IMG/VR virus record: IMGVR_UViG_3300009545_000042
Span: 1 to 38,536 of that record
DNA: 38,536 bases
DNA from: a virus
Reading direction: 5' to 3' (one strand)
Positions 12,743 to 21,313 of the stretch are shown piece after piece. Both the position numbers and the translations under genes were made by a program. The first letter of the stretch is position 1. Every line of letters begins with the position of its first letter. The notes beneath the pieces are model-generated. The model searched no databases. It had not been told where the DNA came from and saw only the letters and a program-made list of their open reading frames with translations.

Positions 12743-13948
12743 TTAGCTATTAGCGTAAAGCAAACCAAGTCGGTTAGGGAGATACACCACTGGCATAAAC
12801 TCAGTAAGCAGAGCACCTTCGATACCATCGAATTTGTTTGCTGCTTCCAGACCTGGAGAAGGCATACCAGGGATCATCTTCTGGATCATCTTGGCACCGT
12901 TACGATACTTCAACTGAATGTTAGTACCATTCTCTGTTTGAGAGAAGTCCAATATCAATGCAAGGTTTCTGTAGTCTTTTACTGTAGAGCTTGCTGTAAC
13001 AGTAGGAACGATTGACGTATCGGAGAACAACTCGTATTTACCGAAGTGAACTTTCTTGCCAAGGATTTCGTAAGATTGAAATCCAAGACCTGCGATAGAT
13101 GCTGGTTTCTCGCTGTTAGGGATTGATCTGTAACGATCTGCCAGAGCGTGCTGAGTGTCTGCGAGTATTTGAGTACCACAGAGAGCAACAAGCTCGTTTG
13201 AACCTTGCTGATCAGAAAGTTGAGTTAACAAGTTAGACCAGTCAGCTTCCTGTACACCTACTGCACTCGAGAACGTTGAAGTCACACCTGAACCAGTTGC
13301 GTACTCCATCAAACCTCTTGAAAGGTTTGCACCCTGAAGAGAAGTTGATTTGAAACGTTTGCCAAAGATCAGCGTAGCTTCAAGATCTCTCATGATCTCG
13401 CGATGTTCGAAATCCTCCTGAGCGAAGTACCAGTCTTTTCCACCTGGAGCATCTACCCATTTTTTAGATTTCATTGCACTACGGGTGATCTTGAAATCTC
13501 TGCGGAGTACAGTTGTTACGTTGTAGTCTGAATCTGGCAGATAGTTTCTGTAACCACCAGCACCTGTAGAGCCTTCACCATACATAGAACCAACATGTCC
13601 GATGTGCATGTTTGCAAGGATCAATGAAGTTGACCAGTTGCCACCACCAGAACGAACCATGTCGATAGTTTGAACTGTTCCACCTGAGTTGGATACTGCT
13701 GTGATGCGGCCAATTTCTTCGGACTCAGCAACACGTACTGTATCGCCTACCAGGAAGTAACCTAAGTTACCAGAGGCTGAATCGTAAGTGGTATCAAGTA
13801 CGCAAGTAACTGTAGCGGTTGTGCCGTTAGAGATAGAAGATACTGTTGCGCTTTTACGTGTACGACCCATTATGTTCCAGGAGATAGTGTCGTTGTCTAT
13901 CTCACCTGTTGCTCCTATTTTGTCAAGGAGTGACGTTAAGTAATATTC
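12743..13948 (-). CDS. Major capsid protein, exon 2
   Basis: The frame of the long capsid reading frame stays open upstream of its first ATG (13870), back to 13948, reading EYYLTSLLDKIGATGEIDND before MGRTRKSATV. Those residues have no start codon, but joining them to exon 1 (14799-14954) gives KYP-EYYLTSLLDKIG in frame. The complete protein is 453 residues (52 + 401), close to crAss-like capsid lengths, whereas 375 would be short. The protein is HK97-like in composition: an extended N-terminus, a long helix around FAQEDFEHREIMRDLEATL, and a beta-rich C-terminus. It forms the icosahedral shell. The gene lies after the scaffold-like gene and ends with tandem TAA stops. The split is inferred; mRNA has not been seen. 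Confidence 0.75.
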   Translation of the reverse strand, partial: EYYLTSLLDKIGATGEIDNDTISWNIMGRTRKSATVSSISNGTTATVTCVLDTTYDSASGNLGYFLVGDTVRVAESEEIGRITAVSNSGGTVQTIDMVRSGGGNWSTSLILANMHIGHVGSMYGEGSTGAGGYRNYLPDSDYNVTTVLRRDFKITRSAMKSKKWVDAPGGKDWYFAQEDFEHREIMRDLEATLIFGKRFKSTSLQGANLSRGLMEYATGSGVTSTFSSAVGVQEADWSNLLTQLSDQQGSNELVALCGTQILADTQHALADRYRSIPNSEKPASIAGLGFQSYEILGKKVHFGKYELFSDTSIVPTVTASSTVKDYRNLALILDFSQTENGTNIQLKYRNGAKMIQKMIPGMPSPGLEAANKFDGIEGALLTEFMPVVYLPNRLGLLYANS

Positions 13949-14798
13949 CAGTTATGTTATCCTACAGGCTTTTTATCCTATAGTTCTATATCTTGTATTT
14001 GATATAGGTCGGCATATATTTTGAACTGCGATTGAAGGTATTCTTCAAAAGAGTCCTCGGACACTCGTGGAGATGTTATATTCTCAGAAGGGAGTTTGTT
14101 TCCTTTACTCCTGTTTTGCACCATTGGTAAAATCTGTAGATTCCACCAAACATGGAGACCACAACAAACATCGTTTTTCAAGGGGTATATGTGATCAACC
14201 TCAAAACGTTCACCTGTTAATGAAGTTAACTTTGCTGCTAACTCATGCATCCTAGTAACTTTAATACTATGATCTTCATCAAACCAATCAGGAATAGCAT
14301 CCTTCTTGGTAGCACGTCTTTTAGAGACGTACTGTATAATTCTAGGGTTAGAGTAATCCTTGTTTAGTTTGTTCCAGTTTCTCATGTAAGAATTGTATTT
14401 TTCTCTATTCTTACGTTGCCAAGCCTCATGATTTGCATTTAATTTGGCCTGTTCAACTGGGTCCATCCATCGTTTTCTATTCACATCATTATCAATGCAA
14501 TACTGCTTTCTACATGTTTTACACTGGTTGTGATAACCATCTGGTCTGCTTTTATTTTTATTAAACGACTCAAATGGTTGAACGATTTTGCAAGATGAAC
14601 ATTTCTTCATTTTCTGAGTTTCAATCTCTATGCTCTACGGTACTAAACGCATTTTAGAGTGTTTAGTTACCTCGGTATTGGCTCTAGTAACATTAGCTTT
14701 CAAAGAACGTCTTTTTACTTGCTACTAGAATTTTCAGCTTCCACCGATTTTGCCCGAAGTTTACTCCCTAGTCACCTAGAGAGGCCCCGATACTAATA
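13949..14798 (-). ncRNA. Group I self-splicing intron in capsid gene
   Basis: An 850-base insertion with an HNH ORF separates two reading frames that join into one capsid protein. With the proposed sites the 5' exon ends in U (CCCU) and can pair with GGGG 11 bases into the intron, leaving the U-G wobble expected of P1, and the intron ends in G. Just inside is an 8-bp hairpin CTCTCTAG-GTGA-CTAGGGAG with a GNRA tetraloop (P2-like). A further 10-bp stem pairs TTCTAGTAGC with GTTACTAGAG. I cannot place P3, P7 and the guanosine site with confidence. Boundaries may shift by a few bases; an alternative 3' site 14 bases downstream also keeps the frame. Confidence 0.7.
13978..14610 (-). CDS. Intron-encoded HNH homing endonuclease
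   Basis: 210 residues. An N-terminal zinc finger (Cys4, Cys7, Cys30, Cys33) of the KKCSSCKIVQPFESFNKNK type precedes a basic helical linker and an HNH nuclease domain: VDH at 138-140, PLKND, GLHVWWNLQ at 151-159, and N-x-x-K-x-N at 166-171. HNH endonucleases of this type cut intron-less alleles and spread their intron by repair. The gene starts 188 bases inside the proposed intron and stops 29 bases before its 3' end, as expected for an ORF carried in an intron loop. It has no counterpart in capsid function. Confidence 0.8.
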   Translation of the reverse strand: MKKCSSCKIVQPFESFNKNKSRPDGYHNQCKTCRKQYCIDNDVNRKRWMDPVEQAKLNANHEAWQRKNREKYNSYMRNWNKLNKDYSNPRIIQYVSKRRATKKDAIPDWFDEDHSIKVTRMHELAAKLTSLTGERFEVDHIYPLKNDVCCGLHVWWNLQILPMVQNRSKGNKLPSENITSPRVSEDSFEEYLQSQFKIYADLYQIQDIEL

Positions 14799-14954
14799 AG
14801 GGTACTTAATAATAAGTGCTGAAAGCACATCTGGCTTTTCGAGTCCATTGTTAAAAATGTGACCTTCAAGTAAGCCTGTTGAATTGTAGGTTGTCCCACC
14901 AGCCACTGCGGTGGTAGGAATTTGTATACCGGGAACCGGTCCTGCGCCTGCCAT
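14799..14954 (-). CDS. Major capsid protein, exon 1
   Basis: A short frame starts at ATG 14954 (MAGAGPVPGIQIPTT) and would stop two codons past the proposed splice site (TAT TAG). Its 52 codons end in ALIIKYP, which reads on naturally into EYYLTSLLDKIG of exon 2. Taken alone the 53-residue product has no sense as a gene, but as an N-terminal arm of the capsid protein it fits the position just after the scaffold-like gene. The leader is A-rich without a Shine-Dalgarno sequence, like other genes here. If no splicing occurs, only this fragment would be made from this start. Confidence 0.7.
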
Positions 14955-18368: not shown

Positions 18369-20270
18369 CTAGCGGTTGAAAATTGATTTAGGAATGTTTC
18401 TAGAGACTTGTGTAGAGTTAGGATAAACAGGTCTTAGGATTCCTCCTACCCGTTCGAGTTTGTAGTGTGTGATCTTATCCTGATCTGAGGTGAGTTGAAC
18501 AGATTTCTTATCAGCTTGCAGCATCACCAGTGCGAGGAAGTATGCCATCGCGAGATCATCGTCAGCGTGGTTATCAGAAAATACTTTGCATTGTTCAAGG
18601 AACTTTACACTGGGTATGAATGCGCTGAAATTATCGATGTGATCCTCTGCCAGTCCTATTAATTGTTGCTTTCTAGGCTCTGTCATTGTAATGCTGTTCT
18701 TCATTTCAAAACCTCCTTTAGCAGTTAGTATTGAGGCTGGAACAAGAGGAAGTAAGTGCGGGTGATGGGTTTTGAAGTAGTTTATCATTCTGGCCCTGTT
18801 GTCTTCAACAAGAACTTTTGTATTGTTAAACCATTTTAAAACCATTGCTGCCTGTTCGAAAAATCCATCAAGCTTTTCTGGTCTGTCAACATACTCAACT
18901 ACTAGTTTAGGAGACTCTGTTCCGAAAGGTTTGGCTAGTACAGCGAGTGCTAAATCAGAAACATCTTTACCTGCTTTCTTTTTCTTATCATCAGAATCCG
19001 CAGGGTCTGCTCCAGCCACATACCCATTAACTCTTCTGGGGTCTGGCATTTCATAAACTATAATCTTACCATTAGGATTAGGTACAAAGTCAACCCCTCC
19101 ATCGTGTTTTGCTCTCATCCATCCAGTGCGTGATTCAGGAGGGTTGCTAAGTATTTTTATTATTTGATCATTTATTAAATGAATATTTCCAACTCCCCCA
19201 GAGGTTACTCGATTGAAAGCATCATTTTCACAGAGTGGGTACTTCTGAACAAAAGCGGCCTGGTATGATCTGTTGGTGTTCTTTAATTTGTGTCGCTCGT
19301 AAATAATCCATCTTATAGACTCAGTTATAAGATCATTACCGAACTTGTCAACAATCAATCCATTATACCCGTGAAAGACAAAGCGATCTAGTGAGTATGC
19401 TTCGTTATTCATGTATAATTCCATTAGGCCTTTGCCGTCAGAGTCTATTGAGCCAACAGTCCCCATGCACAGGGGTATACCAACACGTCTTGTATTAAGT
19501 CTCAAACAGTCTTCAGCAAATTGCCATATAGTTAGAAGGTTTGGTATTTTACCAGCCTCATCAATAATCAATTTAGAAAGCGCACTACCTTCGTATGCAG
19601 AATCTGTTGGTGCTACTGAAAATATGTAGCTTTGAATTCCTTTCTTTATTCTATTTCCGTTTGCGTCTTTTTCATACCAGGCAAATTCGAGGAAATCTCT
19701 TCTGTCAGAAGCACTTGATCTGGGTCTTAGCCACTCAGGTAAATTCTGATAAAGGAATTTCACATGTTTGAACAGTGCCCTAGAATCTTGTTCGCTCTTC
19801 GAATTCATGCCAATAGTAAAATAAGGGCGGGTTATGCAGTCATGAAGTGCGTCCCATGATTCAAGCCAGGAATAACCCACACGTCTTCTCTTGTAGCCTA
19901 CTATTCCTCTCCCTGGATTTTTTTGGATGCTCTCAATCTTTTGAAAATACTCTTCTTGTATAGCTCTGAATTGTGGCAATATTTTTCCTTTCTCGGGGTC
20001 GCGCAGCTTTCCGTAATGAAGCCATGAATATCCTTTACCTGATAAGCTATCATACCCATTTATAATTCTTGATATTTCTTGCATTTGAAAATCAAGCTCC
20101 TCTCGCTTATCCTTAAATTTTTCTGGATATTTATTAGGGGTATAAATTTTCTTTGATACGAATTTAGGCTTGATAGCAATAGAATTGTAATACGCTACGT
20201 CCTTTTCAAGCTCTTCTATCCATTCATTCTCAGGTATTATGCCCGGTATTTCTTCTCTATCTTTCGACAT
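18369..20270 (-). CDS. terL: Terminase large subunit
   Basis: 633 residues, the ATPase-nuclease motor that pumps DNA into the procapsid. The ATPase half has a divergent Walker A, GYKRRRVGYS (125-134), with no lysine next to the serine, a strong Walker B LIIDEAG (234-240), and a coupling motif MGTVGS near 269. The nuclease half shows an RNase H-like acidic set: Asp422 in VAGADPADSDD, Glu489-Asp490 in VLVEDNR, and Asp570-572 in HADDDLAMA. An in-frame TAA sits immediately before the ATG, which fixes the start. The start overlaps the upstream endonuclease gene by 34 bases, and the stop touches the portal start. No small subunit gene is recognised nearby. Confidence 0.88.
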   Translation of the reverse strand: MSKDREEIPGIIPENEWIEELEKDVAYYNSIAIKPKFVSKKIYTPNKYPEKFKDKREELDFQMQEISRIINGYDSLSGKGYSWLHYGKLRDPEKGKILPQFRAIQEEYFQKIESIQKNPGRGIVGYKRRRVGYSWLESWDALHDCITRPYFTIGMNSKSEQDSRALFKHVKFLYQNLPEWLRPRSSASDRRDFLEFAWYEKDANGNRIKKGIQSYIFSVAPTDSAYEGSALSKLIIDEAGKIPNLLTIWQFAEDCLRLNTRRVGIPLCMGTVGSIDSDGKGLMELYMNNEAYSLDRFVFHGYNGLIVDKFGNDLITESIRWIIYERHKLKNTNRSYQAAFVQKYPLCENDAFNRVTSGGVGNIHLINDQIIKILSNPPESRTGWMRAKHDGGVDFVPNPNGKIIVYEMPDPRRVNGYVAGADPADSDDKKKKAGKDVSDLALAVLAKPFGTESPKLVVEYVDRPEKLDGFFEQAAMVLKWFNNTKVLVEDNRARMINYFKTHHPHLLPLVPASILTAKGGFEMKNSITMTEPRKQQLIGLAEDHIDNFSAFIPSVKFLEQCKVFSDNHADDDLAMAYFLALVMLQADKKSVQLTSDQDKITHYKLERVGGILRPVYPNSTQVSRNIPKSIFNR

Positions 20271-21313
20271 TTAGGCAGCTTTGATTCATTGTAGAAGGCG
20301 AATCGCATTCCTTTATATTTATGTTGGTTTCCTTTAGCTACAGAAACACAAATTTTCCGTATTGATTTGTGAATAGTCTCGTCATTGAACAGTTTTGCGG
20401 CGGCTTCTCTGGAAGAGCTGAATACCTCGCCAGTGTCTAAACATATGATTGGCTTTTTCTGCCTTTCCACATAATCACTCTTAATTTTATCTGGAACACC
20501 ATCAGTCTTTAACCACTTCCAAGTACGTCCAATAAGAATAGCATCAACAGCACCATCACCAATACCGATCATTCTAGATATTTCTGCGTTGCTGTATTTT
20601 TTCGTAGCGGCTAATCTTCTGATTTCTGAAACTTGGTCTGGTGTAAGTATTCTAGATTGTTTTTCTGCTGGGCATGAAACATCTATAATAAAATGGTCAG
20701 GGTTGACACAATGTTCACAACCACAATTATTATGAAGAACTTCCTTTTTGTCCTTCAGTTTTATATTTTTCAACATTTGAAAAATGGCTCTACCTGCCTG
20801 TAATGTTTTGCCATCAATATTGACTTTAGGAAAACCATCACTAAACTGACCAACCCATATCCAACATCCTGTATTAGGCTCATAAGCAATATATTTATCC
20901 ATGTGGTAGGACAATGATTTGCGCTTATTTTTGGAAAATTCAGCAATCTTTTCGGGCGGGTGTTTGTAGCCGGTAGCATCGCATTCACCACCATCTTTAT
21001 AATTAACTAAAATCCCTCCGGTTGTAAGCTTTCCGTATAGAGATATTAGTTCAACTTCTTTAGCCTTGGCTTCCTCTAGAGTTAAGTCATCAAGTAATAT
21101 TTCCACTGTATACCCATGCTTAGCGACTATATTTTTCCACCGTTTTGTGCGGGTTTCTTTCTCAAATGCTCTTGAATAGAATACTTCATAACTGCCAGCA
21201 TAAACATGCTGTGATCCTCGTCCAATGTAAAATGGTGTACCTGTATCGTTTCTTAAGTGCCGGTATATGTAAAACCGATCATTATGTTTAGTGTGGATTC
21301 TCTTATAAGGCAT
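20237..21313 (-). CDS. Composite GIY-YIG/HNH/NUMOD homing endonuclease
   Basis: 358 residues carrying what look like two nuclease domains. Residues 13-107 are GIY-YIG-like (FYIYRHL, PFYIGRG, KEVELISLYGK with the catalytic Glu, LVNYKDGG). Residues 148-208 are HNH-like (GCWIWVGQFSDG, LHNNCGCEHCVNPDHF). A helix-turn-helix (224-268, YSNAEISRMIGIGDGAV) follows, then a NUMOD-like DNA-binding repeat (287-345, PIICLDTGEVFSSSREAAA, KYKGMRFAFY). Such enzymes are selfish mobile genes. It sits free-standing between a terminator and terL and overlaps terL by 34 bases. I see no split gene around it. Domain calls rest on motif reading. Confidence 0.75.
   Translation of the reverse strand: MPYKRIHTKHNDRFYIYRHLRNDTGTPFYIGRGSQHVYAGSYEVFYSRAFEKETRTKRWKNIVAKHGYTVEILLDDLTLEEAKAKEVELISLYGKLTTGGILVNYKDGGECDATGYKHPPEKIAEFSKNKRKSLSYHMDKYIAYEPNTGCWIWVGQFSDGFPKVNIDGKTLQAGRAIFQMLKNIKLKDKKEVLHNNCGCEHCVNPDHFIIDVSCPAEKQSRILTPDQVSEIRRLAATKKYSNAEISRMIGIGDGAVDAILIGRTWKWLKTDGVPDKIKSDYVERQKKPIICLDTGEVFSSSREAAAKLFNDETIHKSIRKICVSVAKGNQHKYKGMRFAFYNESKLPKCRKIEKKYRA

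What the first reader, a model, noticed from the sequence alone, without database searches (positions are those of the whole stretch)
12743..14954. Major capsid gene split by an 850-base group I intron carrying an HNH endonuclease
The capsid frame continues upstream of its first ATG to 13948 with capsid-like text, and a separate 52-codon frame starting at 14954 ends in ALIIKYP. Joining them across 13949-14798 gives one 453-residue protein (KYP-EYYLTSLLDKIG). The inserted block has a U at the 5' site, a G at the 3' end, a GGGG guide that can pair with CCCU, a perfect P2-like hairpin with a GTGA tetraloop, a second 10-bp stem and an HNH ORF. Introns in phage capsid genes are uncommon, and annotation by longest ORF would truncate the capsid protein and lose its first exon.
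Basis: partly seen in the sequence, partly recalled or inferred. Interest (0 to 1): 0.88.

Follow-up and report, generated by a model that had tools for sequence, protein, structure and literature searches.

The report
Self-splicing intron in phage capsid gene
A virus of bacteria carries its main shell-protein gene in two pieces separated by an 850-base self-splicing RNA that also encodes a DNA-cutting enzyme; this is a real but already known kind of mobile intron, and gene callers would lose the first 78 residues of the shell protein.

Summary
The finding holds. On the minus strand, exon 1 (14954-14799), an 850-nt intron (14798-13949) and exon 2 (13948-12743) form one 453-residue major capsid gene. 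In 34 of 35 uninterrupted relatives from viral contigs the homologous alignment runs without a gap through KYP|EYY. Of 152 possible in-frame joins the proposed one scores best against a profile of those relatives, and no other join with U before the intron and G at its end comes near. The insert is a group I intron of subgroup IA type: P3, P4, P6, P7, P7.1, P8, P9 and a further 3' hairpin covary across 13 phage introns (97% of cells paired, 33 of 50 pairs doubly changed). A covariance model built without the window finds both halves of the window intron, ending exactly at 13949 (E 4e-20 and 5e-15), and both introns of Lactobacillus phage JCL1032, reported to self-splice. The HNH gene sits in P7.1; its last ~37 codons run through the ribozyme core. 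Capsid introns with homing endonucleases are already known (LittleE, crAss-like phages), so this is a new member of a known kind. Splicing and homing were not observed directly.

The parts
14799..14954 (-). Exon 1 of the major capsid gene, 52 codons, MAGAG...IIKYP
   Evidence: relatives align from residue 41 in this exon straight into exon 2.
13949..14798 (-). Group I (IA-type) intron, 850 nt, U before it and G as last base
   Evidence: covariation in 13 introns; independent model matches 14763-14525 and 14129-13949.
12743..13948 (-). Exon 2 of the major capsid gene, 401 codons plus stop
   Evidence: SU10_MCP 3.3e-10; phrog_13704.
14785..14803 (-). P1: exon CCCU (14802-14799) with guide GGGG (14788-14785), U-G pair at the splice site
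   Evidence: Sequence; not tested by covariation. P10 is only 2 bp (GA with UC).
14764..14783 (-). P2 hairpin, 8 pairs, GUGA loop
14752..14757 (-). P3 5' strand UCGGGC; pairs with GUCCGA at 14062-14057
   Evidence: helix 1: all six pairs show double changes.
14672..14747 (-). P4 (UCGGU 14747-14743 with ACCGA 14676-14672) enclosing P5 (14730-14721 with 14691-14683)
   Evidence: helix 2: 100% paired, one pair doubly changed.
14639..14671 (-). P6 (GGUA-CUAAAC with GUUUAGUACC)
   Evidence: helices 3-4: seven of ten pairs with double changes.
14629..14633 (-). P7 5' strand GCAUA (element R); pairs with UAUGC at 14016-14012 (element S), the guanosine-binding helix
   Evidence: helix 5: 100% paired, two pairs doubly changed.
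14070..14628 (-). P7.1 (GAGAU 14628-14624 with AUCUC 14074-14070), whose loop holds the endonuclease gene
   Evidence: helix 6: four of five pairs doubly changed; cr111_1 holds a GIY-YIG-like gene at the same place.
13978..14610 (-). HNH / endonuclease VII-like homing endonuclease gene, 210 aa; the last ~37 codons overlap P7.1', P3', P8, P7', P9 and the first base pairs of the next hairpin
   Evidence: several relatives end at our residue 173-176.
14023..14056 (-). P8 (GGACU with AGUUC, inner UUGAAG with CUUCAA)
   Evidence: helix 7; fold of this part alone.
13986..14007 (-). P9 hairpin CUAUAUC with GAUAUAG
   Evidence: helix 8: 100% paired, five of seven pairs doubly changed.
13962..13983 (-). 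Further 3' hairpin of the P9 domain, CUAUAGG with CCUGUAG
   Evidence: helix 9: five of seven pairs doubly changed.

Best explanation
The major capsid gene of this phage (related to crAss-like and Cellulophaga phages, so probably infecting Bacteroidota) is interrupted after codon 52 by a mobile group IA intron. In the transcript the intron folds (P1 to P9). A guanosine bound in P7 attacks after U14799, and exon 1 then attacks after the terminal G13949. The exons join into one 453-codon reading frame. The HNH protein encoded in the P7.1 extension is inferred to cut intronless capsid alleles at the junction, so that the intron spreads by homing. Shown by comparison: gene structure, boundaries, ribozyme fold, nuclease family. 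Inferred: splicing in this phage, cleavage and homing.
For: Joined protein: phrog_13704 match improves from 46.7 bits starting at profile position 106 to 58.2 bits starting at 42. 34 of 35 uninterrupted relatives cross the junction without a gap. Profile scores: ATG ORF 41.0, open exon 2 55.9, joined 63.0, shuffled exon 1 55.5-58.2; best of 152 joins, next U/G join 58.3. RNA: 97.1% of cells paired against 76.3% shuffled and 35-44% slid, 33 pairs doubly changed, 0/500 shuffles reach any measure. Independent model E 4e-20 and 5e-15, 3' end exactly 13949; the same model hits exactly the two split genes of JCL1032. HNH family. Gene order terminase-portal-scaffold-capsid as in L020 and L021.
Against: No RNA or virion data. 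The closest capsid relatives are only 20-28% identical, so no near-identical empty allele was compared. P10 is weak (2 bp). The endonuclease frame overlaps the core, so its translation could disturb folding. Pfam gives no HNH match for the ORF.
Confidence: 0.95

Rival explanations
1. The capsid is made from the internal ATG at 13870 (375 aa); exon 1 is an unrelated small gene and the insert is an intergenic region with an HNH gene.
For: ORF calling gives exactly this.
Against: The 26 codons upstream of that ATG and the last 12 codons of exon 1 are homologous to the N-arm of relatives, and the insert has a covarying ribozyme fold.
Confidence: 0.02
2. The intron is a degenerate, no longer splicing relic, so this genome makes no full capsid protein.
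For: The HNH frame overlaps the 3' core; P10 is weak; no RNA evidence.
Against: The window's stems are intact: P8, P9 and the terminal hairpin fold as predicted even in the part coding for the HNH C-terminus. Both exons are open and joined in frame, and a capsid gene is essential.
Confidence: 0.03
3. The insert is removed otherwise: intein, group II intron or translational bypass.
For: All are known in phages (general knowledge); no tool result favours them here.
Against: The frame meets a stop right after KYPY, which excludes an intein; no reverse transcriptase or group II match; 850 nt is far beyond known bypass; the group I core is positively identified.
Confidence: 0.005

Closest known systems
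Capsid gene intron of mycobacteriophage LittleE (PMC3706429)
   Same: 819-bp intron in the major capsid gene, U/G boundaries, homing endonuclease inside, splicing proven by RT-PCR and N-terminal sequencing.
   Different: LittleE's endonuclease is on the opposite strand and related to LAGLIDADG I-CreI; its ribozyme subtype was left unclear; unrelated phage and capsid.
Introns in capsid genes of crAss-like phages (PMC7886860) and cr111_1 (L017)
   Same: Group I intron in the capsid gene; in cr111_1 the same ribozyme family with the endonuclease gene at the same P7.1 place.
   Different: cr111_1 carries a GIY-YIG-like gene that stops before the core, and the insertion site lies deeper in another capsid family.
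Introns of Lactobacillus phage JCL1032 (terL, tape measure)
   Same: Same ribozyme family by the independent model, 140 and 106 bits; reported as self-splicing (Riipinen and Alatossava 2004, cited in PMC6669764).
   Different: Different host genes; no long ORF inside the model matches (212 and 288 bases).
Group IA introns td and nrdB of phage T4
   Same: IA type with homing endonuclease genes (annotation); U/G rule (general knowledge).
   Different: Not recognised by this family's model, so more distant.
Intron of IMG/VR contig L010
   Same: Same ribozyme family (184.6 bits), in a capsid gene N-arm (YQD|NPLLALLPKM).
   Different: No ORF in the intron; an HNH relative of the window's enzyme (28% identity) lies free-standing just downstream of the capsid gene.

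Membership tests
Group I intron | Conserved core P3, P4, P6, P7, P8 with the P3/P7 pseudoknot | tested here: met
   all present in the window row; P3 98.7% paired with six of six pairs doubly changed; P7 100% paired with two doubly changed.
Group I intron | P1 with U-G pair at the 5' site; terminal G at the 3' site | tested here: met
   CCCU with GGGG, last intron base G13949; boundary agrees with protein homology.
Group I intron | P10 aligning the 3' exon with the guide sequence | tested here: inconclusive
   Only 2 bp (GA with UC) by inspection.
Group I intron | Removal and exact exon ligation | not testable with these tools
   Needs RNA; relatives reported to splice exist (JCL1032).
Group I intron | Match to Rfam Intron_gpI at curated score | tested here: inconclusive
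   No match, but the T4 td and nrdB introns are missed too.
Subgroup IA (IA2-like) | Extra stems P7.1/P7.2 between P7 5' and P3 3' | tested here: met
   Covarying P7.1 at 14628-14624 with 14074-14070; P7.2 not separately shown, so IA1/IA2/IA3 is not resolved.
HNH / endonuclease VII-like homing endonuclease | Family sequence match with CxxC pairs and HNH residues | tested here: met
   phrog_1035 7e-21; CSSC...CKTC and VDH...NLQ...N..KGNK in the sequence.
HNH / endonuclease VII-like homing endonuclease | Cuts intronless allele near the insertion site | not testable with these tools
   Needs a protein assay.
HK97-fold major capsid protein (SU10/phrog_13704 type) | Profile match and place after portal and scaffold genes | tested here: met
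   synteny. Fold prediction was not usable.

The most novel reading that the evidence does not exclude
The last ~37 codons of the HNH gene double as the ribozyme's P7.1', P3', P8, P7' and P9, while several relatives end just before. Translation of the endonuclease would then unfold the core, making capsid splicing and endonuclease synthesis mutually exclusive on one RNA and coupling capsid output to how heavily the intron is translated. ORF-core overlap is known in principle (PMC3984707), but I know of no case as a switch on a capsid gene.
Probability: 0.1. Interest if true: 0.5.

Novelty: new member of a known kind. Interest (0 to 1): 0.35.

Why it matters
It corrects the capsid gene model of this phage and shows that standard gene calling plus Rfam overlooks this widespread phage intron family, which also splits tape-measure, terminase and capsid genes in public records. 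The window and contig L010 pair a shared ribozyme family with a related HNH enzyme, once inside the intron and once beside the gene. That makes a comparative case for how free-standing nucleases and introns join.

Tried and rejected
Single-protein scans of viral contigs with the capsid and portal found no relatives, and tblastn of the capsid in phage records found none at 1e-5; only a profile of distant relatives worked. HNH relatives (L002-L009) carried no such intron core. Rfam found nothing, also for the compact L010 intron and for T4. A first assignment of P7 to GAG/CUC was dropped in favour of GCAUA/UAUGC once the ORF-less L010 intron was read, and a first placing of the ORF in P8 was corrected to P7.1.

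Full report
Observation. The window is a 38,536-base virus record whose late genes run on the minus strand. ORF calling gives a 375-aa capsid ORF (12743-13870), a 210-aa ORF (13978-14610) and a 53-aa ORF (14793-14954). The frame of the capsid ORF is open upstream to 13948, and joining 14954-14799 to 13948-12743 gives 453 residues. All coordinates in the finding are correct.

Is it one gene? The 375-aa ORF matches SU10_MCP (3.3e-10) and phrog_13704, but only from profile position 106 of 452 (46.7 bits). The joined protein matches from position 42 at 58.2 bits. Uninterrupted members of that family sit in the same gene order (terminase, portal, scaffold-like, capsid) in podovirus ctfjg026 from Manatee Spring and in Cellulophaga phage phi38:1; members are 443-479 aa long. 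BLASTP against the former aligns residues 41-246 across the junction. A profile scan of viral contigs gave 35 capsid loci. In 34 of them the tblastn alignment begins in exon 1 (all cover residue 41) and crosses KYP|EYY with no gap. A profile of the relatives scores the ATG ORF at 41.0 bits, the open exon 2 frame at 55.9, the joined protein at 63.0, and joins with shuffled exon 1 at 55.5-58.2. Among 152 in-frame joins the proposed one is best, and the next U/G-obeying join scores 58.3.

What is the insert? Its 5' part matches Staphylococcus and Streptococcus phages at E down to 2e-7, and its exact core string occurs in IMG/VR contig L010, where a compact ORF-less intron splits another capsid gene. 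Fetched loci gave 13 cores including the window's, with endonuclease ORFs cut out. On their alignment a structure with P3, P4, P6, P7, P7.1, P8, P9 and a further 3' hairpin is 97.1% paired, with 33 of 50 pairs changed on both sides; none of 500 shuffles and no slid version comes near. A model built from 11 other introns without the window still finds the window's 3' half (65.3 bits, 4e-20, ending exactly at 13949) and 5' half (49.9 bits, 5e-15), and nothing else in the window above background. The two halves are separate because the model has no room for the ORF. The same model hits exactly the two joined genes of Lactobacillus phage JCL1032 (140 and 106 bits), whose two introns are called self-splicing in the title of Riipinen and Alatossava 2004 (cited in PMC6669764). 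It does not recognise T4 td or nrdB.

Subtype. The stem between the 5' strand of P7 and the 3' strand of P3 is the P7.1 insertion typical of IA introns (PMC3984707 names P7.1/P7.2 among class features; PMC3428280 uses them for IA2). P7.2 was not separated, so IA2 is likely but not settled.

The endonuclease. The ORF lies in the P7.1 loop, as does a GIY-YIG-like gene in crAss-like phage cr111_1. It matches phrog_1035 'endonuclease VII' (7e-21) and HNH families. Several relatives end within three residues of our position 173, and the free-standing relative in L010 ends exactly there. The window's frame goes on to residue 210 through P7.1', P3', P8, P7', P9 and the start of the last hairpin, all of which still pair; the 3' part alone folds into P8, P9 and the last hairpin. 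Such overlap is described as a known arrangement that needs controlled expression (PMC3984707).

Mechanism. Best read as an active mobile group I intron that self-splices from capsid mRNA and homes by its HNH enzyme. Splicing, cleavage and homing are inferred from family and integrity, not observed.

Known context. LittleE has an 819-bp capsid intron with a homing endonuclease, proven by RT-PCR and protein sequencing (PMC3706429). [quoted passage not shown] Jug phages carry about 18 introns per genome (PMC12363816). So the case is a well-supported new member of a known kind. None of the 35 related capsid loci carried an intron of this family, so within its capsid family it is an exception.

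Negative results. Rfam never reports these introns, nor the proven T4 ones, so its silence means nothing here. Fold prediction of exon 2 failed.

Noticed in passing
L010 8690-8942 and 10135-10881: Unannotated ORF-less group I intron in another phage capsid gene (joined protein matches phrog_14242 from 4 instead of 43), with a free-standing HNH relative of the window's enzyme just downstream of the capsid gene: a possible collaborative-homing pair.
   Followed up: partly
window 20237-21313 (-): 358-aa homing-endonuclease-like gene (HNH families; GIY-YIG-like N-terminus by eye), overlapping the terminase start by 34 bases; no group I core near it, so apparently free-standing.
   Followed up: partly
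L018 1939-2190 and 2468-2701: Two introns of the same family about 280 bases apart in one gene region of Clostridioides phage pCD1602_4 (175 and 174 bits).
   Followed up: no
L068 (T4 136000-146000), L010, L017: Rfam 15 at gathering threshold reports no group I intron even for T4 td and nrdB: a blind spot for phage IA introns.
   Followed up: partly
Contig behind L059 (22927 bases): Four model matches to this intron family in one 23-kb viral contig: heavy intron load.
   Followed up: no
L069 3880-4112 and 7681-7909: Two more introns of this family in the small phage bajarodcaudo virus 2; the second starts just after the 816-base ORF annotated as major capsid protein, which may therefore be incomplete.
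   Followed up: no
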